In this document: piece after piece, positions 3,256 to 38,870 of the stretch
Numbering within the stretch: position 1 is the stretch's first letter
Layout: every line of letters starts with the position of its first letter
Assembly (NCBI GenBank): GCA_030765065.1
Contig: CM060990.1
Coordinates: 464,240,321 to 464,304,320, forward strand
DNA length: 64,000 nt
DNA from: Deroplatys truncata
Lineage: Eukaryota > Arthropoda > Insecta > Mantodea > Mantidae
Direction: 5' to 3'
Notes under the pieces: model-generated
Databases searched by the model: none
Seen by the model: the letters and a program-made list of their open reading frames with translations, nothing else
What the model was told of the DNA's origin: nothing
Translations under genes and position numbers: made by a program

Positions 3256-4350
3256 TACCTTTTAAAGTACAAAACAGTACGTCCATATTATCACAACAAT
3301 TTAAACAAGGAAAATCTGTTGTGCACTTGTATCACTTGTTGTCGGGCAAGAAGGAAATTCTGTATTGTTGACATTCTCTTGAATTTCGCATTTTCCATGC
3401 CTGACCTTTCTTCTCTTGTGCCTCACCGTAACACTATCTACTGCATCCTGCAACATGTATTATTCTGGGGTCATGTGTAATCTTGGTATATAACCTGGGT
3501 TATCAAGCTCTCTCGTAGGTGGAAATTAATGAAATGCCGAATACAGACACGTGAATATTTTGTTGGAGTCCAAGGATTTCTATCAATTGCGTCTCTCCTC
3601 AAGACGATGATCCAAGTTTTCGTCTATTTGCATGCTGTTTTTCGTTTGGAAACCAGAAAATCGTTCCAGGGGTACAACATTTGTATGTAAAATTACACCC
3701 AACGACAGAACAATTATTGTTCCTCTTGATGCTATATTAATCACCAACTTCATCCTAACTAAAACATTTATTTTTTATAGTAGGTGTTGCGCTCTGGCGG
3801 CAATTCTGGCGACTTGCGTATGGAGTAATAAAAGATAAATGTTTTAGTTAGGATGAAGTTGGTGATTAATATAGCATCAAGAGGAACAATAATTGTTCTG
3901 TTGTTGGGTGTAATTTTACATACAAATGTTGTACCCCTGGAACGATTTTCTGGTTTCCAAACGAAAAACAGCATGCAAATAGACAAAAACTTGGATCATC
4001 GTCTTGAGGAGGGACGCAATTGATAGAAATCCCTGGACTCCAACAAAATATTCACGTGTCTGTATTCGGCATTTCATTAATTTCCATCTACGAGAGAGCT
4101 TGATAACCCAGGTTATATACCAAGATTACACATGACCCCAGAATAATACATGTTGCAGGATGCAGTAGATAGTGTTACGGTGAGGCACAAGAGAAGAAAC
4201 ATCAGGCATGGAAAATGCGAAATTCAAGAGAATGTCAACAATACAGAATTTCCTTCTTGCCCGACAACAAGTGATACAAGTGCACAACAGATTTTCCTTG
4301 TTTAAATTGTTGTGATAATATGGACGTACTGTTTTGTACTTTAAAAGGTA
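3256..4350. repeat. 1.1-kb foldback: 516-bp inverted arms with 63-bp loop
   Basis: Positions 3256-3771 reappear as the reverse complement at 3835-4350 with only scattered mismatches (for example CGACAGAAC versus CAACAGAAC). The loop 3772-3834 is unrelated to the arms. Open frames inside mirror one another and are not treated as genes. The right arm ends about 180 bp before a DDE_4 transposase remnant in the same orientation. The foldback may therefore be a duplicated 5' part of that transposon or a separate foldback element. Terminal target duplications were not identified. Confidence 0.85.
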
Positions 4351-21800: not shown

Positions 21801-22953
21801 ATGTTCATTTGGTCAAATGCTGTAAATGTGCAATCAAGCGGTTGAATGTACGAGTATCGTTGGTTGTATAGAAGTTTGAAGTTTCTGAAGCTGTGTATTT
21901 TTCTAGGTCAAATGAAATGCGTGCTCTGACTGGACAACCCGTATAGTTTTCTCTATAAGGGATTTAAAATAAAGGATAAGTGTAGTTTTTAAAAATTTGG
22001 ATGTATTATATGACTGGAAATAAGGGCTATAAAGAAACCCATGATTTTTGCCAGGCCCAAAAGTAAAATTGTGCAATATTCTTTCCATATGGGTTAAATA
22101 GTGCAGAGTCCTTGGTCCTATTGTACAAGCGTATGAAGAGTTCAAAGGATGGTTCAAAGAGGTTGATTTGTATGCTAGGATTTAAGAATAAGTTTCGAAA
22201 ATAAAGAGGCGGAAATTATGGAAAGTTGTAGGATAGCTTATCATTTTACCAGCTTCTAAAACCCAAGTGTAGGAGTGTTGTCAAAGTCATACTAAAAATG
22301 CTACTTGATAACAAAGGTCAGCGAAATAAGAGGGAAATTGGTGATATGAACACGATATGTAACTCCCCCTGCAATAACTCAATTTTAAAAGATTTTAAGT
22401 ACCTTCATTTATGGCTTTGGATTAGAAGTCATTAAAAATCTGCTATGTTTCCAATAAGATGCCAAAATACTCTTTCATATTTACATTCAATGAAACAGGA
22501 TTGAAATAGAGTAACATGAATATGAATTCTATCCTAAACTACCCAGTTTAAAAACTCTGGGAAACATTTTATTGTCTACGTCCGTACAGAAGAACATTGC
22601 TTTTCAACGGTGAAAGAGTAATCAAAGTGTGTCATCAATGTGTGATCAAATAATCAAACATTTTCCCTCGCTCTCTGTGTGTTTCTTTTATAACATCAGT
22701 ACAGCTAGTTTTCAAGTTATAAACAACGCACAGCTTTACTTACACTTCATTTATTCTATAGCTTTCTTTAAATACGTTATATTCGTAATACCACATAGTC
22801 TATCTGAGACAAGAACGATCCTGTTGTAAACAAAAAGGGGGAGCGGACTCAACTCGCCAGTGTTAGACACTACACGTGTGCACATAACTTTTGCAACAGT
22901 AGTTGTAGCAGCGCTAAATTCTTGACAATAAATCGAGTAAAGCATTGACGGTT
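18874..22953. other. AT-rich intergenic DNA
   Basis: No gene, RNA or clear mobile-element signature was found. Open frames up to ~107 codons (20,005-20,328 minus) have no recognisable motif. A TTAGG-like motif near 20,930 is isolated. Confidence 0.4.
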
Positions 22954-22984
22954 AGTAGGTAAATATAGAGGGAGCTGGCACAGT

Positions 22985-24030
22985 TTTTTGCGTTTATATG
23001 GGAAAAGATAGGGAAAACGATGGTGGATGCGGAGGAAAATGCGTTTATATGGGCGAGATAGGGAATACGAGGATTGACGCTAGGCTAGACTGGTAGAATG
23101 AGGGGGAATGCGGTTTATATGAGACAGATAGGGAATACGTGGAGAGGTGCTAGGCTAGACAGAGGCTGAGGAGTAGAGTATGGTTTATATGAGAGGTGTA
23201 GGAAAAGGAGGAGAGGTATTAAGCTAAGGAGGTTGAGTATGCGTTTATAAGGAGACGAGAAAACGGAGAGATCCTATGCTAGAATAGACAGATGTTGAAG
23301 GTAGAATGTGTTTTATATAGGTTAGATAGTAAACCAAGGAGAGATACTCAGCTAGACAGGGGAGGGAGAGGAATACGCTTTATGAGAGGTAGGGGATACG
23401 AGGAGAGATGCTAGACTAGACAGTGTTTGAGAGTAGAGTATGCGTTTATATGTATGAGAGGTATAGGAACAGGAGGAGAGGTATTAGGCTAAGCAGGTTG
23501 AGTATGCGCTTTTAGGGTGAGACGTGAAAACGGAGAGATCATCAGCTAGACAGGGGCAGGAGGGGAATACGCTTTATGAGAGGTATGGGATACGGGGTGA
23601 GATTGCTAGACTAGACAGAGGTTTAGAGTAGAGTATGCTTTATATGTATGAGAGGTATGGGGTCAGGAGGAGAGGTATTAGGCTAAGGAGGTTGAGTATG
23701 CGTTTATAAGGAGAGACGGGAAAACGAGGGTAGATCTAGGTTCGGAGAGCGTTCAAGGAGAAAAATGCGTTTATATGGGAGAGATGGGGAAAACGAGAGG
23801 AGATCCTAAGTAGAGAAAGGATTCAAGGAGGGGGAATGCGCTTTATATTTAAGAGGTAGGAAATACAAGGAGAAGTGCTACACTAGACAGAGATCAAGGA
23901 GTAGAGTATGGTTTATATGAGAGGTATAGGAACAGGAGGAGAGGTGTTAGGCTAGACAGATACTGAAGGAGTAACAATATGGGTTTATATACAGGAGAGA
24001 TAGGGCATAGCAGGGGAGATGCTAGACTTT
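22985..24030. repeat. degenerate 60-70-bp tandem array, left arm
   Basis: About 15-16 imperfect units start with GCGTTTATATG and continue with a GAGATAGGGAATACGAGGAG-like part and then GCTAGACTAGACAG. Unit length varies between about 50 and 75 bases. Some units have a TATGAGAGGTATAGG variant. The right arm has the mirrored array at about 37,620-38,650. Confidence 0.85.
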
Positions 24031-24129
24031 GAAAGTGACTTTAGACGCGGTCGTCACGGGAAGCTGTTTGTTGTCAATGATGGACCACTAATTCTAGGTA
24101 GCTCCAGCACGTAACCCACTCATTTTAAA

Positions 24130-24735
24130 AAGGTAGCCAGAAATGGGAAAAAGGTGACCCATAAAGGGAAAAAGGTGACCCATAAAGGGAAAAAGTGACT
24201 GCTCAGGGAAAAAGGTGACCTGCAACGGGAAAAAGGTGACCCACAAAGAGAAAAAGCTGACCCTAAAGGGAAAAATGTGACCCATAAAGGGAAAAAGGAA
24301 ACCACAAAGGGAAAAAGTGACCATCAAAGGGAAAAAGGTGACCAGAAAAGGGAAAAAGGTGACCAGCAAAGGGAAAAAGGTGACCATTAAAGGGAAAAAT
24401 GTGACCCATAAAGGCAAAAAGGTGGCCCACAAAGGGAAAAAGGTGACCCACAAAGGGAAACAGGTGATCCATAAAGGGAAAAGGGTTACCAGCAAAGGGA
24501 AAAAGGTGACCAGCAAAGGGAAAAAGGTGACTCATAAAGAGAACAAGGTGACCAGCAAACTAAAAAAGGTGACCAACAAGGGAAAAAAGGTGACCAGCAA
24601 GATGAAAAAGGTGACCAGCAAAGGGAAAAAGGTGACCAGCAACGGGAAAAGGTGACCCGCAGAGGGAAAAAGGTGGCCAGCAAAGAAAAAAGGTGACCCA
24701 CTCAGGGAAAAGGGCAGGGAAAAAGGTGACCCTCT
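24130..24735 (+). repeat. 21-bp minisatellite, left arm (~29 units)
   Basis: The unit is GGGAAAAAGGTGACCvariable, with the variable part CATAAA, CAGCAAA or CACAAA, repeating every 21 bases. Since 21 is a multiple of three and the unit lacks stops, long open frames arise in several frames (KGKKVTS-type repeats). They are a by-product of the array, not evidence of a gene. The mirrored right-arm array is nearly twice as long. Confidence 0.92.
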
Positions 24736-24739
24736 CTCG

Positions 24740-25200
24740 CTAAAAGGTAAGTAACTCAGTATCACAGGATAGGGCAGATTCCGGGAAACGGATATAGCAT
24801 AGTTCCGTATGATTTCACAGGTAATTTACATAGCAACGTAGGTATTTGGCGATTCAAGTATCATAGGTGCTTAGAGTAACTCAGCTAGTATCACAGGTGG
24901 CTATATTACAGAGGTGACTGCATCATAGCTGTGTATGAAATCACAGGTAATTCAGACAGTGTCTAGGTATTTGGGCGATTCAAGCATCATAGGTGTTTAG
25001 AGTAAATCAGCTAATATCCCAGGAGGCTAGATTCCATGATCAGGGTTTCGTATCAGAGCTATTTAATGTAATTTCACTTGATTCGAGTAGTATCACAGGT
25101 ATTTAAGTCATTTTAACAGGTAATTCAGATATTATCACAGGTACTCATGGTAATATAGAGAGCAATTAGATTATAAACATTTCGCATCCAGCGTTACAGC
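24740..25200. repeat. ~130-bp degenerate tandem repeats, left arm
   Basis: At least three imperfect copies of a unit with GATTCAAGTATCATAGGTG, CTTAGAGTAACTCAGCTA and ATCACAGGTAATT. The mirrored copy in the right arm is at about 35,975-36,400. The stretch between this and polB (25,200-25,496) holds no recognised gene. Confidence 0.75.
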
Positions 25201-25496
25201 ATTTTGTATACCTTTTTCTAAATCTTACAAACCTTTTATATGTTAAACAGTTAGTGGACGAGGCTGAGAGGGATAAACTGCATCTGGGTTTACAAAATGA
25301 AAAGCTATGCATCAACATACCTTAATTTAGTACGTCGTACGTGCCTCTCCCCTTTTATCTAGGCTTGAGACTAGCACTAGGATTGCTCCTAATGGCAGGG
25401 TTAACACCTCCCCTTCCATGTTCTTCTTTCCTCATCGGAGGGCTGCTAGTTGCATACACAGCACGTGAGTAAACTTAATTTTTGAAGATTGTAGAC

Positions 25497-28400
25497 TCAC
25501 GAGGAAACCTTCATCTTCTACTTGCATTCTCTTAAGCACTGTCTGTAATACTGTAAAGTCCATACGCATAGGGTAGTTACTCCATCCTCGGCAATAACTC
25601 TTTTATCATCAAAGGGATTCAATGTAATTTTATTCACTTGTACTGTGGTAACAGCGTGCTTTCGCGATAGGATTAGATTCATGTGCTTCTGATGATTTCA
25701 CAGGATTTAAGACAGTCTGTGTAGCTGTCAAACGAAATGTACTGCTTAATAGGGCTACGTTTTATACATTTAATCGTTTTATCATTGATCCTTGAATATC
25801 TAAGGCATACATCTTAGGACGTAGTCCAACAAAGCGTAGGATGATTTTGCTATTAGTCTCATCTTTAAATTTTCCCAATTCCTTCTTGTTCTGAGTAGAG
25901 TGACATATATGGTTGGCAGGGTAATCAGCTGTATCGAGATGCTCAAGAAAATGTAGCTTGTCCTGGTACACATCTTCAGTTGTAACACGATGATTGAACG
26001 AATCAGTGTCCATATACATAAGCTTCAGGCTTTCAGCTCCATAATAAGGCAACAACACGTCGTAATGATAGTTATACATTAATGTCTTGGAGATGTCCAA
26101 CACATTCATACCAATGTATATAGGCTTGTTGAATACAATCTGACGAGAGGCAATATGTACAGCAGCTAGATTAGCAGCATATATCGTCCTGTCGATAAAC
26201 GTAGGCTTGGCGATCAGTTTCTCTAGAGTTTTTTCATTGGTCACCAGTCGTATATCCACATGGTTACGCAGGTTCTCCATAGTTTTTCCACACATGGCGT
26301 TGTTAAAGAGTTTGTAGAGATCCTTCTCGAAGTCATTTGCAGCTTGTTGTCGTAGCCTGTTGTTAAATTACACATAAGGTTTCAACCACCGAGACTGTAG
26401 GAATTGTAGCACACGATGGCTTTTTGTTAGTCATAGTCCATGACTAAGAGCTTGCTTCAAAGCCATATAATGCACTACATACTTATTTCGAGGTCCAAGA
26501 TGAGGTATCAGTTTCCTTGTAAATGCTTCCAATGGTTTCATACACTCAGGCAGGAAAGGTAGATCGTTGTGTAGATCGTGAAGTTCTGCAGGATACTCGA
26601 TGTGGACTTCTAATATGCACCCATGAGGATCATCTTCTTGTAGTGCTTCTAAGTTGATTTCTTCAGGTGACACCCACTGAAATCCACTATAAGGAAGGGC
26701 GTGACACATTGCCCACCCATATTGGTTATTAGCGTCCTCGTATGTGATAAATTGGGCTGGTCTCGACGAAGCAAACTTATCCCTGTAAGTGTTATTAGCC
26801 TCAGGATACCGATGGGAAACTTGGCATAAACCTCCTCTTATACCTGATTCCACCATGAGTAGTTGATTATAATCTTATAACAGTTCCAGCTTAATTCCTG
26901 TATACAATAACATGGCATCCCATGTAAGCCCTGGAGAGGTAAAATAATGGGCAGGATCAACTTTGTGTGTTTTGAGGGTTTGCTCTCTGAAACGTCTCAA
27001 AGATATCAGCTAGGAGTAGTACATCTGAGGTTAAGTAGAGATCGCTGTACTCTCCCAGGTTTCTCACATTAAACAGCTCCCACACATTTCTAGCATGATC
27101 GTAGTCAGTATCAGTAATTTCTTCTTCATTTAATCTATTGCAGAAGGATTCTTTAGGAGACAAGCAGGTCTCGTTCAGGGCATCCCATGACGTAACAAAA
27201 TCATATGGAAATACACCCTTACGGGTCATCAACTTCAATTTGTCTTCTCCAAAGTACTTTAGTGTTTCAGGATATGAGGTTAGATTTTTCGCCAACCTAT
27301 CCAAGCTTGTACTGAGGAATCGGAAGCTGTCCACAAATCGAAGCTTTATATCTCCTACATACTTGGTGAATGAGATATAGCTTTCTTCAGAGTTAGGAAT
27401 TACCTCCACACGTTCACTTGTACAACCCAGCTCCTTAACAATGAAATGAGAGTCATATCCGCTAAGGTTATGCATGAGGACTGGTGTATATTTAGGTGTT
27501 TTACAGGCTAAATTACATTCATTATTAAGACTTCCACGATATTCACCGCTGATGTGATCATGGTCGCGTACTTTATAGTTCTCTTCTGTAAAGGGTTTTC
27601 CACACAAGTAGCATGCTGAAGAAGACTGAAAATCCTTTTGCTGTTGATCCGTAAGTTTCAGAGGCTTAGCAGATTTGTATGTATTACCAATCATTTTTGC
27701 AAGAGATTTCAGGTACAGCATAAGCTTCTGAGCTGCATCAGCACCACGATACACATAGGGTTGCTTAGGAAGACCAGTTTCGAGATGTTCAACACTGGAT
27801 GTAGGCTTCACGTAAACACAGAAGCTCATTGGTGTGTGCTCTTGATAAGGGATTGTATAGGAAGTTTCAGGATTGGGTATACACGTATGGCATGGAGTGA
27901 GAATACTCTCAAAATCCGCATAGATGACATAAGGTACTTTCAACATCCTCTCAACATTTTTAAACTGAACAATTGATTTCTCCTTGCTAGGCATAACTAC
28001 CTTCGCAACACCATGTTGATTACAGATTGATGTATCTTCTTGTAGTTTTTCCAGCTCACTTTGCCCGCTCTGATCATCAAAATGTGTAAAGCAGCGCTTA
28101 CAGGTATAAACACGCCCATTACGTTTAGTCTTCTGACATCGAACGAGTTTCTCAAAATTCTTTATATATACGTGGTGATGTTTTCCACTACTGTCATTCA
28201 ATAGTAACAGGTCACAGTGTTCAGCTAGTTCAATGTCTACAACCTTTATCGGATACACTTCGTGCTTCTCATCCAGCCCGAAAACGTTGATAGACATCTT
28301 GTTAAGCTTCTCAAATTTAAATATTTGTGAAAGTGGTGCAGGGTACGAAACACAGCTGAAGTCGTACTTACTTTGAAGTTGTTTGTATTTGTTCACCCGC

Positions 28401-29185
28401 TGTGCATTCTTCCCTATGAATTTAGCTAATACGGAGTACATGAACCATTTCTCGTCGGTAAAGTTCTGGATATTTATACACGCTTTTCTTGCTTCAACAG
28501 ATGACGGTAGTGGAATGTAGCTACTTCCTCGTAACGGGTTGTACTTGTTGATACGAAGTCGAACCCCTTCCACAGCAAGCAAAGCCCAGTTGCTACCCTT
28601 AAGCTGAGACTCCTCCATTTCAGTCACAAATTTTTTGAATTTCGCTTCCAACGTTGAATCCAGATCTGTTTCTAGGAAAACAGGATGAATCCTGGGTTTA
28701 AATGTTTTGTCACAAGTTTCACCGATACTGTTAACAAATCGACACTCAGCCAGCAGATTAATTTTAACACTCTTGTAAATGCTAAGTTCTTTATGCACAG
28801 CCTGGATTATGCGTTGTTTTGCCTCATGGAGATACATATTCAGGTCCTTAGGTGATTCACATCGTATAAAATACGATTTCAATCGTCCTTCGAATGAAGT
28901 TTCGTATTCTTTCATATCACAGTCCTCCATTGTTGACAGTAACTGATGTTTAGTTGGCTCCAATCTTCTTTTCTTCTGAGGTCTGTTTATTTCACACATA
29001 TCTTCGTGTCGCTGACCCTTATAACCATCTTTGAAGGTTACATTACAATGCATGTATTTGAAGAGCTTCTTACAAGTCAGCTCGTGTCTTCTCTTGTCAT
29101 AACCTCGGAGGAACTTCTTCCCACATTTTCCGCATGCATATCCAGTAGCGCTTGGAATAATATCCTTATACGCTGAGTTATTCAT
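25497..29185 (-). pseudogene. polB: protein-primed type B DNA polymerase, left-arm copy
   Basis: Polinton/adintovirus-type DNA polymerase that would replicate a linear genome using a protein primer. It starts at ATG 29,185 (MNNSAYKD...). The first 742 codons are intact: two Cys/His finger-like motifs at about residues 18-66, exonuclease motif I YADFES (~423), an endonuclease-VII-like CYLCGKPF...DHDH block (~525-550), and NLSGYDSHF (~575). Beyond a one-base insertion near 26,990 come motif A EDANNQYGWAM, motif B NNAMCGKTMEN and motif C MYMDTDSF, with stop codons between them. One of these, TAA at 26,368-26,370, is shared with the right copy. The C-terminus ends at 25,497. Total span is about 1,229 codons. 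A TATA box lies upstream. Confidence 0.9.
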
Positions 29186-29344
29186 CTTTATTCTTGATGT
29201 GATAACGTATTAATCCTTCTTCTAGGGAAATTTAGGCCTCTTCACCTTGATAACACTTTAGAAAGCTGATTATTCTTGGAGAGAACACGATGTTAACACC
29301 TCAAGACTAATTAGCACAATGAAGTCCAATGCCCTAGATCACCA

Positions 29345-29352
29345 TATTTATA
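29345..29352 (-). promoter_or_regulatory. TATA box for left polB
   Basis: TATAAATA on the minus strand lies about 160 bases before the ATG at 29,185. The same box is mirrored at 31,794-31,801. A perfect CRE-like TGACGTCA sits further upstream at 29,470-29,477, inside a tandem pair of ~28-bp CACRCCCAGARRCAGGATGT-type units. Confidence 0.55.
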
Positions 29353-29832
29353 GAGGGAGCACGAACCTTTCAGATCAATCATAAACTCGCTCCATAACCA
29401 GCTGTTTATGATCGCGCAACGTGTATTAACCCCAGTCATATAACCTCACGCCCAGAAGCAGGATGTTTATGACGTCACACCCAGAGACAGGATGTCTGGT
29501 AGCATCAAACACGTTTAAACTCGTCTCGTAACTACCTGTATATGCTGTCACACCAACAAGAGAAGTATTCCCACACGCTCATTCAGTCAGATGTTCCATT
29601 CAACGCCTACCACCACCCATTACACCAAAGCTAGCACAATCTCAAAGGCCTAAAAGGTAACGTAGAAGATTTTCTCCCTTGTTTAATTAACTATATGTAT
29701 ATACTACATTATTTCACGTTTTCATTCCCTTTTCAATTCTTCCTTTCCATCTTCCCACAGAAAAAACATTACATTTGACTACAATCATGAGCAAAGCAAT
29801 TTTTCCAGAGTTACAGAGATTCTAAGCTTCTA

Positions 29833-31313
29833 GAATCGAACTCGGTAATACTTTTAATAAATGTATTTTTAGTAACTTAGCTTCCCCGCATCAGCATCTA
29901 CCATTTAATCTTTACTCGAACCTGATAGGATTCATAGGCTTGAAGATATATGAAATCACCCCTTCGGGATTCGATCTGAGTACTTTAAAGTAGTTATTGT
30001 CATGAAAACGATATTTAGGGACTAGGTACTCTGTTTACCTTATACCTAACATGTCTATCTAAATTAAATTACGAATTATTAAATTTGCAAGTTAATTCCA
30101 TTGAATCAGTATTCAAACCCAGAACACCAGGAACAAAATAATTTATAATATTAGTCTGACATGTTAAGCAAAGCTGCATGCAGTTACATCATCGATCTAA
30201 GTGATATATTGTAGTGTACAGAGGAAAATTAACAGAGTCATTAAAAGATGGGGAATCGAACTAAGGACAACTGTTTGACAATTATATACAGCGTTAATTT
30301 TCCATCATAGGAGCTATCAATTATGCTTTAGTCCACTCCACTATGCCTTGCATAGTTCCCGAGATAATAAAGTTTTAAAAATTAAGGATCGAAACCAGGA
30401 CGTCAGGTATCTAATTACACATCCCCAAGATACTACCTAACACCGTAAACGCAACCAAGTTTATTTAGTGCCTTTATCTTAATTAGTTTAGGAGTTATTA
30501 AATTTATAAATAAATTACATTTTATCGGTATTCGAATCCAGAACAGCAGAAAACAAATTATTTACAATATTAGTTTGATATGTTTAAAAGAGCTGCACAC
30601 AGTTACAGCATCAATCTAAGTGGTATATTCTAGTGTACAGTGGAAAATTAAGGAAATTACTGAAAGATCGGGATTCGAACTAGGGACAACTGATTGGAAA
30701 TTATATATAATATTAATTACCCATCACAGGAGCTATCAATAATGCTTTATTCCACCTCTCTACCTTTCTTCGTTTCCGAGATAATGGAAATTTAAAAATT
30801 AAGGTTCGAATCCAGGACACCAGGTACCGAAATATAGATTCAAATCAAACTACCTAATGGCGACAATGTAATAAAGTTTATTTGGTGTCCTTGTCTTAAT
30901 TATTCTCTGAGTTATTCGAAGATGAATTTCTAATCACTCCTAGGATTCGAACCCAGGCATACCGGTCAACTTGGAACAACACCTTAATGACGCGGCGCAT
31001 TCCAAAGAATTGATTAGTTTTTATCCTATTGTTCTACTGATTCAATGGAATTTACTTGCAAATTTAATAATTCGTAATTTAATTTAGATAGACACGTTAA
31101 GTATAAAGTAAACAGAGTACCTAGTCCCTAAATATCGTTTTCATGACAATAACTACTTTAAAGTACTCAGATCGAATCCCGAAGGGGTGATTTCATATAT
31201 CTTCAAGCCTATGAATCCTATCAGGTTCGAGTAAAGATTAAATGGTAGATGCTGATGCGGGGAAGCTAAATTACTAAAAATACATTTATTAAAAGTATTA
31301 CCGAGTTCGATTC
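29833..31313. repeat. central array of T-arm-like TTCGAA motifs, 130-145-bp spacing
   Basis: Motifs related to GGTTCGAATCC or its complement occur near 29,833, 29,966, 30,111, 30,253, 30,386, 30,530, 30,672, 30,803, 30,943, 31,170 and 31,303. Most successive distances are 131-145 bp. Best copies: GGTTCGAATCCAGGACACC (30,803) and GGATTCGAACCCAGG (30,943). Units fall into three alternating types, so that about 30,106-30,520 and 30,525-30,940 form a direct ~420-bp duplication. The asymmetric spacer 30,112-31,034 is the loop of the giant palindrome, and the outer motifs are already in the arms. Complete tRNA folds are not evident. Flanking A-box-like TAGCTCCTGTGATGGG occurs in one type. Confidence 0.75.
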
Positions 31314-31793
31314 TAGAAGCTTAGAATCTCTGTAACCCTGAAAAAATTCCTTTGCTCGTGATTGTAGTGAAATGTAATGTTTTTTCTGTGGGAAGATGGA
31401 AAGGAAGAATTGAAAAGGGAATGAAAACGTGAAATAATGTAGTATATACATACAGTTAATTAAACAAGGGAGAAAATCTTCTACGTTACCTTTTAGGCCT
31501 TTGAGATTGTGCTAGCTTTGGTGTAATGGGTGGTGGTAGGCCTTGAATGGAACATCTGACTAAATGAGCGTGTGGGAATACTTCTATTGTTGGTGTGACA
31601 GCATATACAGGTAGTTACGAGACGAGTTCAAACGTGTTTGATGCTGCCAGACATCCTGTCTCTGGGTGTGACGTCATAAACATCCTGCTTCTGGGCGTGA
31701 GGTTATATAGCTGGGGTTAATACACGTAGAGCGATCATATACAGCTGGTTATGGAGCGAGTTTATGATTGATCTAAAAGGTTCGTGCTCCCTC

Positions 31794-31801
31794 TATAAAT
31801 A
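31794..31801 (+). promoter_or_regulatory. TATA box for right polB
   Basis: TATAAATA with an initiator-like TTCATTG about 30 bases downstream (31,823-31,829), and ATG 31,961 about 130 bases after that. The CRE-like TGACGTCA is at 31,669-31,676. The mirror arrangement matches the left arm. Confidence 0.55.
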
Positions 31802-31960
31802 TGGTGATCTAGGGCATTGGACTTCATTGTGCTAATTAGTCTTGAGGTGTTAACATCGTGTTCACTCCAAGAATAATCGGCTTTCTAAAGTGTTATCAAG
31901 GTGAAGAGGTCTACATTTCCCTTGAAGAAGGATTAATACGTTATCACATCAAGAATAAAG

Positions 31961-34900
31961 ATGAATAACTCAGCGTATAAGGATATTATTCCAAGCGCTA
32001 CTGGATACGCTTGCGGAAAATGTGGGAAGAAGTTCCTCCGAGGTTATGACAAGAGAAGACACGAGCTGACTTGTAAGAAGCTCTTCAAATACATGCATTG
32101 TAATGTAACCTTCAAAGATGGTTATAAGTGTCAGCGACACGAAGTAATGTGTGAAATAAACAGACCTCAGAAGAAAAGAAGATTGGAGCCAACTAAACAT
32201 CAGTTACTGTCAACAATGGAGGACTGTGATATGAAAGATTACGAAACTTCATTAGAAGGACAATTGAAATCGTATTTTATACGATGTGAATCACCTAAGG
32301 ACCTGAATATGTATCTGCATGAGGCAAAACAACGCATAATCCAGGCTGTGCACGAAGAACTTAGCATTTACAAGAGTGTTAAAATTAATCTGCTGGCTGA
32401 GTGTCAATTTGTTAACAGTATCGGAGAAACCTGTAACAAAACATTTAAACCCAGGAATCATCCTGTTTTCCTAGAAACAGATCAGGATTCAACGATGGAA
32501 GCGAAATTCAAGAAATTTGTGACTGAAATGGAGGAGTCTCAGCTTAAGGGTAGCAACTGGGCTTTGCTTGCTGTGGAAGGGGTTCGACTTCGTATCAACA
32601 AGTACAACCCGTTACGAGGAAGTAGCTACATTCCATTACCGTCATCTGTTAAAGCAAGAAAAGCGTATATAAATATCCAGAACCTTACCGACGAGAAATG
32701 GTTCATGTACTCCGTATTAGCTAAATTCATAGGGAAGAATGCACAGCGGGTGAACAAATACAAACAACTTCAAGGTAAGTACGATTTTAGCTGTGTTTCT
32801 TACCCTGCTCCACTTTCTCAAATATCTAAATTTGAGAAGCTTAACAAGATGTCTATCAACGTTTTCGGGCTGGATGAGAAGCACGAAGTGTATCCGATAA
32901 AGGTTGTAGACATTGAACTAGCTGAACACTGTGACCTGTTATTATTGAATGACAGTAGTGGAAAACATCACTACGTATATATAAAGAATTTTGAGAAACT
33001 CGTTCGATGTCAGAAGACTAAACGTAATGGGCGTGTTTATACCTGTAAGCGCTGCTTTACACATTTTGATGATCAGAGCGGGCAAAGTGAGCTGGAAAAA
33101 CTACAAGAAGATACATCAATCTGTAATCAACATGGTGTTGCGAAGGTAGTTATGCCTAGCAAGGAGAAATCAATTGTTCAGTTTAAAAATGTTGAGAGGA
33201 TGTTGAAAGTACCTTATGTCATCTATGCGGATTTTGAGAGTATTCTCACTCCATGCCATACGTGTATACCCAATCCTGAAACTTCCTATACAATCCCTTA
33301 TCAAGAGCACACACCAATGAGCTTCTGTGTTTACGTGAAGCCTACATCCAGTGTTGAACATCTCGAAACTGGTCTTCCTAAGCAACCCTATGTGTATCGT
33401 GGTGCTGATGCAGCTCAGAAGTTTATGCTGTACCTGAAATCTCTTGCAAAAATGATTGGTAATACATACAAATCTGCTAAGCCTCTGAAACTTACGGATC
33501 AACAGCAAAAGGATTTTCAGTCTTCTTCAGCATGCTACTTGTGTGGAAAACCCTTTACAGAAGAGAACTATAAAGTACGCGACCATGATCACATCAGCGG
33601 TGAATATCGTGGAAGTCTTAATAATGAATGTAATTTAGCCTGTAAAACACCTAAATATACACCAGTCCTCATGCATAACCTTAGCGGATATGACTCTCAT
33701 TTCATTGTTAAGGAGCTGGGTTGTACAAGTGAACGTGTGGAGGTAATTCCTAACTCTTAAGAAAGCTATATCTCATTCACCAAGTATGTAGGAGATATAA
33801 AGCTTCGATTTGTGGACAGCTTCCGATTCCTCAGTACAAGCTTGGATAAGTTGGCGAAAAATCTAACCTCATATCCTGAAACACTAAAGTACTTTGGAGA
33901 AGACAAATTGAAGTTGATGACCTGTAAGGGTGTATTTCCATATGATTTTGTTACGTCATGGGATGCCCTGAACGAGACCTGCTTGTCTCCTAAAGAATCC
34001 TTCTACAATAGATTAAATGAAGAAGAAATTACTGATACTGACTACGATCATGCTAGAAATGTGTGGGAGCTGTTTAATGTGAGAAACCTGGGAGAGAACA
34101 GCGATCTCTACTTAACCTCAGATGTACTACTCCTAGCTGATGTCTTTGAGACGTTCAGAGAGCAAACCCTCAAATCACACAAAGTTGATCCTGCCCATTA
34201 TTTTACCTCTCCAGGGCTTACATGGGATGCCATGTTATTGTATACAGCAACTAAGCTGGAACTGTTACAAGATTATGATCAACTACTCATGGTGGAATCA
34301 GGTATAAGAGGAGGTTTATGCCAAGTTTCCCATCGGTATCCTGAGGATAATAACACTTATATGGATAAGTTTGCTTCGTCTTGACCAGCCCAATTTATCA
34401 CATACGAGGACGCTAATAACCAATATGGGTGGGCAATGTGTCACGCCCTTCCTTATTGTGGATTTAAGTTGGTGTCACCTGAAGAAATCAACTGAGAAAC
34501 ACTACAACAAGATGATCCTCATGGGTGCATATTAGAAGTCGACATCAAGTATCCTGCAGAAGTTCACTATCTACACAACGATCTACCTTTGCTGCCTGAG
34601 TGTATGAAACCATTGGAAGCATCTACAAAGAAACTGATACCCCATCTTGGACTTCGAAAGAAGTATGTCGTGCATTACATGGTTTTGAAGCAAGCTCTTA
34701 GTCATGGACTACGACTAACAAAAAGCCATCGTGTGCTACAATTCCTACAGTCTCGGTTGTTGAAACCTTATGTGTAATTTAACAACAGGCTACGACAACA
34801 AGCTGCAAAGGACTTCGAGAAGGATATCTACAAACTCTTTAACAACGCCATGTTTGGAAAAACTATGGAGAACCTGCGTAATCGTGTGGATATACGACTG

Positions 34901-35648
34901 GTGACCAATGAAATACCTCTAGAGAAGCTGATTACCAAGCCTACGTTTATCGACAGGACGATATATGCTGGTAATCTAGCTGCTGTACACATGGCCTCTC
35001 GTCAGATTGTATTCAACAAGCCTATATACAATGGTATGGGTGTGTTGGACATCTCCAAGACATTAATGTATAACTATCATTACGACGTGTTGTTACCTTA
35101 TCGTGGAGCTGAAAACCTGAAGCTTATGTATATGGACACTGATTCGTTCATTCATCGTGTTACAACTGAAGATGTGTACCAGGACAAGCTACGTTTTCTT
35201 GAGCATCTCGACACAGCTGATTACCCTACCAACCATATGTCACTCTACTCAGAACAAGAAAGTATTGGGAAAATTTAAAGATGAGGCTAATAGCAAAATC
35301 ATTCTACGCTTTGTTGGACTACGTCCTAAGATGTATGCCTTAGATATACAATGATCAATGATAAAAAAGATTAAATGTATAAAACGTAGCGCTATTAAGC
35401 AGTACATTTCGTTTGACAGCTATACAGACTGTCTTAAAACCTGTGAAATCATCAGAACGCACATGAATCTAATCCTATCGCGAAAGCACGCTGTTACCAC
35501 AGTACAAATGAATAAAATTACATTGAATCCCTTTGATGATAAAAGAGTTATTGCCGAGGATGGAGTAACTACCCTATGCGTATGGACTTTACAGTATTAC
35601 AAACAGTGCTTAAGAGAATGCAAGTCTAAGATGAAGGTTTTCTCGTGA
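31961..35648 (+). pseudogene. polB: protein-primed type B DNA polymerase, right-arm copy
   Basis: Mirror copy of the polymerase at 25,497-29,185, ~1,229 codons, same start and stop. The frame is kept from 31,961 to about 35,240 but is interrupted by in-frame stops at 33,758 (TAA), 34,382 (TGA), 34,493 (TGA) and 34,775 (TAA). A frame change follows near 35,240-35,280, then a TGA at 35,352. Visible motifs: finger-like Cys/His pairs (18-66), exonuclease I YADFES (D423), an endonuclease-VII-like CYLCGKPF (~525), motif A EDANNQYGWAM (~815), motif B NNAMFGKTMEN (~960), and motif C MYMDTDSF (D1059). The TAA at 34,775 is present at the same codon in the left copy; the others are private. Not functional. 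Confidence 0.9.
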
Positions 35649-35659
35649 GTCTACAATCT

Positions 35660-36404
35660 TAAAAAATTAAGTTTACTCACGTGCTGTGTATGCAACTAGC
35701 AGCCGTCCGATGAAGAAAGAAGAAGATGGAACGAGAGGTGTTAACCCTGCCATTAGGAGCAATCCTAGTGCTAGTCTCAAGCCTAGATAAAAGGGAAGAG
35801 GCACGTACGACGGACTAAATAAAGGTATGTTGATGCATAGCTTTGCATTTTGTAAACCCACATGCAGTTTATCCCTCTCAGCCTCGTCCAGTAACTGTTT
35901 AACATATAAAAGGTTTGTAAGATTTAGAAAAAAGTATACAAAGTGCTGTAACGTTGGATGCGAAATGTTTATAATCTAATTACTCTCTATATTACCATGA
36001 ATACCTTTGATACTATCTGAATTACCTGTTAAAATGACTTAAATACCTGTGATACTACTCGAATCAAGTGAAATTACATTAAATAGCTCTGATACGAAAC
36101 CCTGATCATGGAATCTAGCCTCCTGGGATATTAGCTGATTTACTCTAAACACCTGTGATGCTTGAATCGCCCAAATACCTAGACACTATCTGAATTACCT
36201 GTGATATCATACACAGCTATGATGCAGTCAGCCTCTGTAATATAGCCACATGTGATACTAGCTGAGTTACTGTAAGCACCTATGATACTTGAATCGCCAA
36301 ATACCTACGATGCTATGTAAATTACCTGTGAAATCATACGGAACTATGCTATATCCGTTTCCCGGAATCTGTCCTATCCTGTGATACTGAGTTACTTACC
36401 TTTT
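35660..36404. repeat. right-arm spacer with ~130-bp degenerate repeats
   Basis: Mirror of 24,740-25,490. Short frames here, including one rich in Leu at 35,673-35,861, are mirrored in the left arm and have no recognised domain. Confidence 0.7.
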
Positions 36405-37515
36405 AGCGAGAGAGGGTGACCTTTCTCCCTGCCCTTTTCCCTGAGTGGGTCGCCTTTTTTCTTTGCTGGCCACATTTTTCCCTTTGCTGGTCATCTTTTT
36501 CCCGTTGCTGGTCACCTTTTTCCCTTTGCTGGTCACCTTTTTCCCCATGAGGGTCACCTTTTTCCCTTTGCTGGTCACCTTTTTTCCTTTGCTGGTCACC
36601 TTTTTCCCTTTGCTGGTTAACTTTTTCCCTTTATGAGTTACCTTTTTCCTTTGCTGGTCACCTTTTTTCCCTTTGCTGGTCACCCTTTTCGCTTTATGGG
36701 TCACTATTTCCCTTTGCGGGTCACCTTTTCCCTTTGCGGGTCATCTTTTTCCCATTATGGGTAGCTTTTTCCCTTTGCTGGTCACCTTTTTCCCTTTATG
36801 GGTTACCTTTTTCCCTTTGTGGGTCTCCTTTTTCCCTTTATGGGTCACCTTTTTCCCCTTTACGGGTCACCTGTTTCCCTTTGCTGGTGCTCGTCACGTT
36901 TTTCCCTTTGCTGGTCACCTTTTTCCCTTTGCTGGTCACCTTTTTCCCTTTACTGGTCACCTTTTTCCCGTTGCTGGTCATATTTTCCCTTTACTGGTCA
37001 CCTTTTTCCCTTTGCTGGTCACCTTCTTCCCTTTGCTGGTCACATTTTTCCCTTTACTGGTCACCTTTTTACCTTTGCTGGTCACCTTTTTCCCTTTGCT
37101 GGTCACCTTTTTCCCTTTGATGGTCACCTTTCTCCCTTTGCTGGTCACATTTTTCCCTTTGCTGGTCACATTTTTCCCTTTACTGGTCACCTTTTTCTCT
37201 TTGCTGGTCACATTTTTCCCTTTACTGGTCACCTTTTTCCCTTTGCTGGTCACCTTTTTCCCTTTGTGGGTCACCTTTTTCCCTTTATGGGTCACCTTTT
37301 TTCCCATTACGGGTCACCTTTTTCCCTTTGCTGGTCAGCTTTTTCCCTTTGTGGGTCACCTTTTTGCCGATGCAGGTCACCTTTTTCCCTGAGCAGTCAC
37401 TTTTTTCCCTTTATGGGTCACCTTTTTCCCTTTATGTGTCGCGTTTTTCCCTTTATGGGTCACCTCTTTCCCTTCATGGGTCACCTTTTTCCCTTTGCTG
37501 GTCACCTTTTTAGCA
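36405..37515 (-). repeat. 21-bp minisatellite, right arm (~53 units)
   Basis: Unit GGTCACCTTTTTCCCTTTGCT and variants, the complement of the left array. The array is ~1.1 kb versus ~0.6 kb on the left. This is the main length difference between the arms. Long Phe/Leu/Pro- or Lys/Gly/Val/Thr-rich open frames up to ~248 codons are artefacts of the 21-base period. Confidence 0.92.
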
Positions 37516-37619
37516 TGAGTGGGTTTCGTGCTGGAGCTACCTAGAATTAGTGTTCCATCATTGACAGCAAACAGCTTCCCGTGACGACCGCGTCTAAAGT
37601 CACTTTCAAAGTCTAGCAT

Positions 37620-38650
37620 CTCCCCTCCTATTTCCTATCTCTCCTGTATATAATCCCATATTGTTACTCCTTCGGTATCTGTCTAGCCTAACACCTCTCC
37701 TCCTGTTCCTATACCTCTCATATAAGCCATACTCTACTCCTCGATCTCTGTCTAGTCTAGCACTCGTCCTTGTATTTCCTACCTCTTAAATATAAAGCGC
37801 ATTCCCCCTCCTTGAAGCGTTGCTCTACTTAGGATCTCCTCTCGTTTTCCCCATCTCTCCCATATAAACGCATTTTTCTCCTTGAGCGCTCCCCGAACCT
37901 AGATCTACCCTCGTTTTCCCGTCTCTCCTTATAAACGCATACTCAACCTCCTTAGCCTAATACCTCTCCTCCTGACCCCATACCTCTCATACATATAAAG
38001 CATACTCTACTCTAAACCTCTGTCTAGTCTAGCAATCTCACCCCGTATCCCATACCTCTCATAAAGCGTATTCCCCTCCTGCCCCTGTCTAGCTGATGAT
38101 CTCTCCGTTTTCACGTCTCACCCTAAAAGCGCATACTCAACCTGCTTAGCCTAATACCTCTCCTCCTGTTCCTATACCTCTCATACATATAAACGCATAC
38201 TCTACTCTCAAACACTGTCTAGTCTAGCATCTCTCCTCGTATCCCCTACCTCTCATAAAGCGTATTCCTCTCCCTCCCCTGTCTAGCTGAGTATCTCTCC
38301 TTGGTTTACTATCTAACCTATATAAAACACATTCTACCTTCAACGTCTGTCTATTCTAGCATAGGATCTCTCCTTTTTTTCGTCTCCTTATAAACGCATA
38401 CTCAACCTCCTTAGCTTAATACCTCCCCTCGTTTTCCTACACCTCTCATATAAACCATACTCTACTCCTCAGCCTCTGTCTAGCCTAGCACCTCTCCACG
38501 TATTTCCTATCTGTCTCATATAAACCGCATTCCCCCTCCTTCTACCACTGTCTAGCCTAGCGTCAGTCCTCGTATTCCCTATCTCGCCCATATAAACGCA
38601 TTTTCCTCCGCATCCACCATCGTTTTCCCTATCCTTTCCCATATAAACGC
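37620..38650. repeat. degenerate 60-70-bp tandem array, right arm
   Basis: Complement of the array at 22,985-24,030, with CATATAAACGCAT and CTGTCTAGTCTAGC blocks in each unit, about 15-16 units. The order of variant units can be matched between arms, so the array was present before the arms diverged. Confidence 0.85.
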
Positions 38651-38870
38651 AAAAAACTGTGCCAGCTCTCTCTATATTTACCTACTCTGGTTACTTATTA
38701 GGTTACTTAGGTTAGGTTACTTCAAGGTGTTACAGAATTAATATTGTGGTATATAAGAGAGACTTTATTAATTTAATTGGGATGTTATGTATTATTTCAT
38801 GATTTGGCAGTTGGAGGTGTAGGTTTGGATATGACCGGTAATGGTCGTTAAGTATCAAATAGCTGATTAA

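What the first reader, a model, noticed from the sequence alone, without database searches (positions are those of the whole stretch)
22954..38686. A 15.7-kb palindromic Polinton-like element made of two outward polB arms
Seen: two ~7.2-7.7-kb arms that are reverse complements over their full length, a sharp ~0.9-kb loop, AGTAGG/CCTACT termini and a degenerate 6-bp duplication. Known: Polintons have inverted ends and 6-bp duplications and replicate by protein priming, and protein-primed linear genomes such as adenovirus can form copy-back or snap-back deletion genomes. Inference: this is an integrated copy-back Polinton that kept only one end and polB, mobilised in trans by another element's integrase. 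I know of no description of a Polinton this long that is entirely palindromic with PolB inside the repeats.
Basis: partly seen in the sequence, partly recalled or inferred. Interest (0 to 1): 0.92.

Follow-up and report, generated by a model that had tools for sequence, protein, structure and literature searches.

The report
Self-mirroring polymerase transposon family
An animal genome carries a large family of mobile DNA elements that are almost perfect 17-kb mirror images of themselves, with a viral-type DNA polymerase gene in each half, and they appear to spread as mirror images instead of becoming so after insertion.

Summary
The palindrome is real. Arms 22954-30111 and 31035-38686 are reverse complements (96.5% of aligned bases), each with an outward-reading, broken family-B DNA polymerase gene. 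It is not a one-off. In the same 4.29-Gb genome polB DNA lies as divergent inverted pairs at 13 of 29 loci hit. The family's inner end runs into an inverted second arm at 38 of 39 loci hit (capped lists). Ends are AGTAGG...CCTACT. A perfect 6-bp target duplication flanks 22 of 27 copies checked and 9 of the 12 known to be palindromic, so palindromes integrate as units. Of 21 centres examined 14 share one ~100-bp asymmetric spacer, 5 are deleted there and 2 were not reached. The two arms of a copy are sisters in 10 of 10 pairs, 0.03-3.1% apart. The window copy is an old member whose lost centre made the 0.9-kb loop. The modelled PolB of a relative best matches protein-primed polymerases. Best reading: a polB-only, Polinton-like element that propagates as a palindrome, probably through a snap-back hairpin, with integrase in trans. 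No such family appeared in the literature listings.

The parts
22954..30111 (-). left arm of the palindrome (polB sense on the minus strand)
   Evidence: self-BLAST and global alignment to the complement of 31035-38686
31035..38686 (+). right arm of the palindrome
30112..31034 (.). loop: inner part of the left arm whose right-hand partner, with the central spacer, is missing in this copy
   Evidence: matches the inner arm of L050 and both sides of centres L039-L043; a 2-bp TA is shared at the junction 31034/31035
22954..22983 (+). left terminus AGTAGGTAAATATAGAGGGAGCTGGCACAG
   Evidence: family terminus found 418 times
38657..38686 (-). right terminus, inverted copy of the same 30 bp
   Evidence: exact hit to the family 30-mer at C16:464278977-464279006
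22948..22953 (+). left half of the degenerate target duplication (ACGGTT)
   Evidence: 4 of 6 with the right half
38687..38692 (+). right half of the degenerate target duplication (CTGGTT)
24127..24711 (+). 21-bp satellite array, about 28 copies, left arm
   Evidence: TRF
36448..37511 (-). 21-bp satellite array, about 51 copies, right arm
   Evidence: TRF
26957..29185 (-). left polB, N-terminal piece: zinc-finger-like start (by eye), Endonuclease_7, first part of DNA_pol_B_2
   Evidence: Pfam, Endonuclease_7 E 2.3e-6 and DNA_pol_B_2 E 4.8e-13
26431..26874 (-). left polB, second piece (motif A region DANNQYG; motif name recalled)
   Evidence: no Pfam hit
25762..26367 (-). left polB, third piece (NNAMCGKTMEN and YMDTDSF; motif names recalled)
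   Evidence: no above-cutoff Pfam hit
31961..33760 (+). right polB, N-terminal piece, ended by a stop absent from the left arm
   Evidence: Pfam Endonuclease_7 E 1.6e-6
33761..34384 (+). right polB, second piece
   Evidence: Pfam DNA_pol_B_2 E 9e-12
34778..35278 (+). right polB, third piece
   Evidence: no Pfam hit

Best explanation
The window holds an old, centre-deleted copy of a transposable-element family whose usual propagating form is a near-perfect palindrome of about 16-18.5 kb. Two identical outer ends carry the integration termini, each arm carries a protein-primed-type polB gene reading outward, and an asymmetric ~100-bp spacer lies in the middle. SHOWN: palindromes are integrated as single units with 6-bp target duplications; many insertions share one centre; the two arms of a copy are each other's closest relatives. 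INFERRED: each cycle passes through an extrachromosomal palindrome. A displaced strand folds into an ~8.5-kb hairpin with the spacer as loop and is copied from the single open end, or by self-priming at the AGTAGAAATAAAATG / CATTTTATTTCTACT stem. Mismatches between arms are repaired in the hairpin, so every new insertion starts with identical arms. Integration uses an integrase supplied in trans, probably by a Polinton. After insertion the arms drift and centres are lost by deletion, as in the window.
For: Palindromic pairs at 13 of 29 loci hit by polB DNA, all divergent (40 of 10,754 candidates scored; two short rows at C6:66.04 Mb dropped before counting). Inner end: 34 of 39 loci in inverted pairs, 31 of those 34 with gaps of 49-97 bp (one partner only 40 bp long); 4 of the 5 unpaired run into an inverted second arm (40 of 5,968 candidates scored). 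Centre-flank 23-mer: 210 + 200 exact hits, control 0; the first 15 unpaired loci of the list all run into the inverted second arm, 11 with an intact centre. Perfect 6-bp duplications in 22 of 27 copies, and in 9 of the 12 known to be palindromic; control 0 of 380 mismatched flank pairs perfect. Same spacer in 14 of 21 centres examined, 5 deleted there, 2 not reached. Arms sisters in 10 of 10 pairs. Window arms differ by 3.1% in polB, so this is no read chimera. Modelled PolB of homologue P0003: phi29 polymerase first, densovirus-labelled, adintovirus and bidnavirus-like polymerases first among viral models.
Against: No extrachromosomal form or transposition was observed. Sister arms could also come from gene conversion inside chromosomes. 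The spacer by itself hardly folds better than shuffles (z -0.6 to -2.3), so the hairpin step rests on the arms. No integrase donor was found. The polB dN/dS signal is mixed: 0.30 pooled between copies, but 0.71, 0.94 and 1.68 in three of the eight between-copy pairs printed. Only one monomer-like copy was read in full, and the searches scored a small part of the candidates. The window's own duplication is only 4 of 6.
Confidence: 0.72

Rival explanations
1. One reading: each palindrome is a separate copy-back product of a normal, non-palindromic Polinton that is still the replicating parent.
For: Arms are near identical in young copies. Different copies have different loop boundaries: window 30111/31035, C16:454 29346/28611, C16:252 28576/27048. 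L050 is a monomer-like copy with 336-bp inverted ends and a perfect duplication.
Against: Independent events would not give the same ~100-bp centre at the same base in 14 of 21 examined centres and in 11 of 15 sampled 23-mer hits. No copy with an intact non-palindromic inner terminus was seen: 38 of 39 loci and 15 of 15 sampled hits continue into an inverted arm. L050's junction lies where the spacer begins, with short filler, as a deletion would leave it.
Confidence: 0.13
2. The palindrome is an ancient state, and the arms are kept alike by gene conversion inside chromosomes and not at each replication cycle.
For: Arms of a copy are sisters in 10 of 10 pairs; long inverted repeats are known to convert (recalled).
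Against: Window arms have drifted to 3.1% and C16:454 arms to 1.5% in polB. The two satellite arrays of the window differ by about 22 units. Conversion is therefore not keeping arms equal in old copies.
Confidence: 0.1
3. Two separate head-to-head insertions, or a host inversion/duplication after insertion.
For: Weak duplication (4 of 6) at the window flanks.
Against: 9 of 12 palindromic copies carry perfect outer 6-bp duplications, and copies share one centre.
Confidence: 0.02
4. Assembly artefact (fold-back reads joined into a false palindrome).
For: Palindromes are a known failure of some libraries (recalled); 5 of 9 arm pairs compared outside the window are 99.6-99.9% identical.
Against: 250 mismatches and unequal satellite arrays between the window's arms; outer duplications fit the second end of each copy; the same central spacer in unlinked loci.
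Confidence: 0.01

Closest known systems
Polinton / Maverick transposons (polintoviruses)
   Same: Size class, AGT-type ends, 6-bp target duplications, a protein-primed-type family-B polymerase, inverted ends (PMC8097293 and PMC4028283, passages read).
   Different: Intact vertebrate Mavericks have inverted ends of 46-1,447 bp and a conserved gene set with integrase and capsid genes (PMC8097293, passages). Here the inverted repeat is the whole element and polB is the only gene recognised. The 742-aa N-terminal PolB piece aligns with the eight PolB loci of the same genome that I fetched (L001-L008) over only 96-101 residues at 31-33%.
Bidnaviruses and adintoviruses
   Same: Polymerases labelled densovirus, adintovirus and bidensovirus are the top viral structural matches to the modelled relative; bidnavirus PolB and terminal repeats are thought to come from a polintovirus (PMC4061559, passages).
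   Different: They are viruses with capsid genes, and bidnavirus end repeats do not form hairpins (PMC4061559, passage). The passages read do not describe any as palindromic.
Snapback / copy-back genomes (AAV snapback genomes; adenovirus examples recalled)
   Same: Self-complementary genomes, symmetric or asymmetric around a fold-back point (PMC8235507, passages).
   Different: Those are subgenomic products beside a standard genome; here the palindrome is the common, multi-copy, integrated form with one shared centre.
Foldback (FB / Galileo) transposons (recalled)
   Same: Very long inverted repeats with internal tandem arrays.
   Different: Different coding capacity and, from memory, longer target duplications; no polB.

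Membership tests
[quoted passage not shown]
   DNA_pol_B_2 in window pieces; model of a homologue (P0003) matches phi29 polymerase first. Priming itself not tested; sequence searches against PDB gave no polymerase hit.
Polinton / Maverick | 6-bp target site duplication | tested here: met
   22 of 27 copies perfect, 3 of 27 five of six, the window 4 of 6, one copy 1 of 6
Polinton / Maverick | AG/AGT-type terminal inverted repeats of ordinary length | tested here: not met
   AGT ends are met, but the inverted repeat spans the whole element
Polinton / Maverick | RVE integrase gene | tested here: not met
   None recognised in the window, L050 or L052; the only long non-repeat frames are polB or its antisense. 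Not tested across the family.
Polinton / Maverick | capsid, ATPase and protease genes | tested here: not met
   No further long frames in window, L050 or L052; by eye none of the 38 A32-ATPase hits of the genome lies between terminus pairs listed (150 candidates scored). Not tested across the family.
Bidnaviridae / adintovirus | PolB of this clade plus capsid genes | tested here: inconclusive
   Closest viral PolB models, but no capsid gene seen in the copies read
Snapback / copy-back defective genome | derives from a standard non-palindromic parent in the same population | tested here: not met
   No such parent at 39 inner-end loci or 15 sampled centre hits; the search is not exhaustive

The most novel reading that the evidence does not exclude
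A transposon lineage whose life cycle depends on being a palindrome. The mobile unit is a hairpin-dimer DNA that copies and corrects one arm against the other every cycle, with a conserved central site acting as a turn-around end (comparable to a viral hairpin telomere). This would be a new kind of protein-primed, snap-back replicating element that has outlived any non-palindromic parent.
Probability: 0.45. Interest if true: 0.92.

Novelty: new variant of a known kind. Interest (0 to 1): 0.82.

Why it matters
Long palindromes are unstable and normally seen as accidents. Here, by extrapolation from 410 centre-flank hits, of which 14 pairs and 15 single hits were looked at, some 200-400 genomic sites carry one with a shared centre; sampled copies have near-identical arms and clean target duplications. 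That makes it testable whether a protein-primed DNA element can live as a hairpin-copied palindrome, and whether inter-arm repair keeps a selfish gene intact. It also adds a natural system for studying palindrome stability, because centre deletions of different sizes are preserved in sister copies.

Tried and rejected
Rejected: two insertions or host inversion (outer 6-bp duplications, shared centre); assembly artefact; a tRNA or known RNA in the window despite GGTTCGAATCC-like motifs in the inner region (0 tRNAs; 0 Rfam matches); a strongly folding spacer (z -0.6 to -2.3; the z of -7.9 to -10.5 includes the arms and says nothing about the spacer). An empty site for the window was not found: the last ~277 bp of the left flank before the junction are matched by none of the other 39 places listed (40 scored of 2,495 candidates), and the right-flank search did not complete. 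One scan of IMG/VR with the window PolB piece found no relative. Sequence searches against PDB found no polymerase. The similarity of the centre to the element's terminus is strong in some copies only: 0 of 500 mononucleotide shuffles reach the score in 6 of 23 centres (L039, L041, L058, L064, L065, L107), but 3 to 176 of 500 do in the other 17. I therefore treat it as a lead. The polB-selection test was mixed.
Full report
WHAT IS THERE. The window lies at C16:464240321-464304320 of a 4.29-Gb genome with no name attached. The two arms 22954-30111 and 31035-38686 are reverse complements along their whole length: 96.5% identity of aligned bases, 250 mismatches, 500 gap columns, 492 of them in a 21-bp satellite array with about 28 copies on the left and 51 on the right. 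From outside to inside each arm has a 30-bp terminus, about 1.1 kb of diverged repeats, the 21-bp array, polB reading outward, and an inner stretch without long frames, built of diverged ~425-bp repeats. PolB is broken in both arms: three pieces on the left and three on the right, with one stop present only on the right. Pfam finds DNA_pol_B_2 and Endonuclease_7.

IT IS A FAMILY. PolB DNA from the window matches 29 loci among the 40 candidates scored (of 10,754 first-look candidates); 13 of the 29 are divergent inverted pairs (two short rows at C6:66.04 Mb were dropped before counting). The other 16 showed one arm in that capped list; three of these have the palindromic centre (C2:36, C1:194702, C1:190), and the rest were not settled. 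The family terminus (30-mer, up to 2 mismatches) occurs 208 + 210 times, control 0 + 0. Among the first 100 positions listed I read off 26 terminus pairs by eye, 3.1 to 25.4 kb apart, 10 of them 15.9-18.5 kb.

PALINDROMES INTEGRATE AS UNITS. Of 20 of these 26 pairs, 16 have a perfect 6-bp duplication, 3 have five of six, and 1 (C16:693998035) has one of six; 0 of 380 mismatched flank pairs were perfect and 5 of 380 had five or six matches. The 20 were all pairs whose ends had not yet been fetched, chosen before their flanks were seen, except two on C1 (C1:198.97 Mb, nested; C1:224717230, one end fetched). Six further copies are perfect: C12:167, C16:311 and C9:172 (GATGTG, ATTGTA, TTTCTA, read by eye) and L050, L051, L052. 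The window has 4 of 6. Total 22 of 27 perfect. Twelve of the 27 are known palindromes by their centre or arms (C12:167, C16:311, C9:172, C16:252, C14:95, C2:36, C1:190, C16:203, C16:227, C1:194702, C13:128, window): 9 perfect, 2 five of six, the window 4 of 6. The others are shorter forms or not settled.

ONE CENTRE. In copies with an intact centre the arms run inward to a spacer bounded by AGTAGAAATAAAATG and CATTTTATTTCTACT, about 100 bp in all. I fetched 16 centres: five from polB pairs (L039-L043), and 11 midpoint pieces, of which six held the centre (L058, L060, L061, L063-L065) and three were completed by shifted fetches (L125-L127); in two (L057, L062) the piece did not reach it. Five other polB pairs already showed a deleted or rearranged centre in hand: window, C16:454, C14:205, C1:133, C6:66. 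So 14 of 21 have the same centre, 5 are deleted there and 2 are open. Independently, the inner end of L050 hits 39 loci (40 scored of 5,968 candidates): 34 as inverted pairs, 31 of them 49-97 bp apart, the rest 103, 208 and 1,688 bp, one partner only 40 bp long; 5 are unpaired. Four of the five run straight into an inverted second arm with a deletion; the fifth is L050 itself. An exact 23-mer at the centre flank occurs 210 + 200 times, control 0. Of the 100 positions listed, 28 form 14 pairs within 200 bp. The first 15 unpaired loci in list order (two hits at C1:85.83 Mb counted once) all run into the inverted second arm, 11 with an intact centre and 4 with a deletion there (for L117 and L124 the continuation was matched by eye). 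No non-palindromic inner end was seen in these samples.

DERIVATIVES, INCLUDING THE WINDOW. L050 (8.7 kb) looks like a monomer with 336-bp inverted ends at 96.7%, but its second end begins where the spacer would begin, with short filler. That fits loss of one arm. L051 (3.1 kb) and L052 (9.9 kb, loop inside polB) are further deletion forms. The window's left arm runs to about 50 bp from the centre, and its right arm begins at the counterpart of 30111. The lost piece is therefore about 1.1 kb across the centre, with a 2-bp TA shared at the junction. The 0.9-kb loop is thus arm sequence that lost its partner.

ARMS EVOLVE TOGETHER. In a FastTree of 34 polB stretches, the two arms of all 10 complete pairs are sisters, with support 0.895-1.0. 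Within-copy divergence is 0.03-3.12%, against 0.29-3.95% from the first arm to the nearest other copy. The most diverged pair is the window (3.1%), which also has the most worn duplication of the 12 known palindromes. The dN/dS contrast is not clean: within-copy total 0.47, between-copy pooled 0.30, and the eight between-copy pairs printed range from 0.24 to 1.68. I draw no strong conclusion from it.

THE POLYMERASE. The best database relatives of the 742-aa piece are mostly ~1,200-aa proteins; the nearest named ones are from Nilaparvata lugens, Halyomorpha halys and Rhodnius prolixus at 47-48% identity, and farther ones from molluscs and corals. An AlphaFold2 model of one unnamed homologue (P0003, 46% identical, mean pLDDT 87) matches phi29 DNA polymerase first, including the complex with terminal protein, and among viral models densovirus-labelled, adintovirus and bidensovirus polymerases. 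PDB sequence searches found only zinc fingers or chance hits. The eight other PolB loci fetched from this genome (L001-L008) align with the piece over only 96-101 residues at 31-33%.

HOW IT MOST LIKELY WORKS. Shown: unit integration, shared centre, sister arms, centre and arm deletions. Inferred: replication as a linear palindrome with two identical origins; displaced strands fold on themselves into a hairpin; copying and mismatch repair of the hairpin equalise the arms; an integrase from another element inserts the product. The self-priming stem at the centre is a plausible way the form arose. Snapback genomes of AAV show that such molecules can replicate (PMC8235507, passages read).

NOVELTY. 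Seven literature searches in open PubMed Central text (I saw listings only, the top 7 to 25 of 7 to 157 papers each) showed no palindromic Polinton or Maverick family; two searches looked for snapback precedents. Intact vertebrate Mavericks have inverted ends of 46-1,447 bp (PMC8097293, passages). Subscription papers, preprints and repeat databases were not searched.

Noticed in passing
window 3256-4350: A second, unrelated palindrome: 1.1 kb that matches its own reverse complement at 95.9%.
   Followed up: no
L107 (C16:697486630-697487030): A centre whose terminus-like stretch reads GCGCA, like the GCGCAG variant of the outer termini; centre and ends may co-vary.
   Followed up: no
L054 (C1:224717200-224723000): First half of a 10.6-kb element with GCGCAG-type ends that shares the outer repeats but holds long direct repeats offset by ~550 bp and no long polB frame in that half.
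   Followed up: no
window 29186-31034: Inner region of diverged ~425-bp repeats with GGTTCGAATCC-like motifs resembling a tRNA B box (motif recalled); no tRNA or Rfam match.
   Followed up: partly
G000:C1:291345576-291350028: Five centre-flank hits in 4.5 kb, a complex or nested locus.
   Followed up: no
L003-L006 and similar places: Other PolB families with frames of ~1,280 aa at many loci with nearly equal scores, possibly recently active full-size Polintons.
   Followed up: no
G000:C16:417497523-417522931: A 25.4-kb element with family termini and a perfect 6-bp duplication (GACAAA); content unknown.
   Followed up: no
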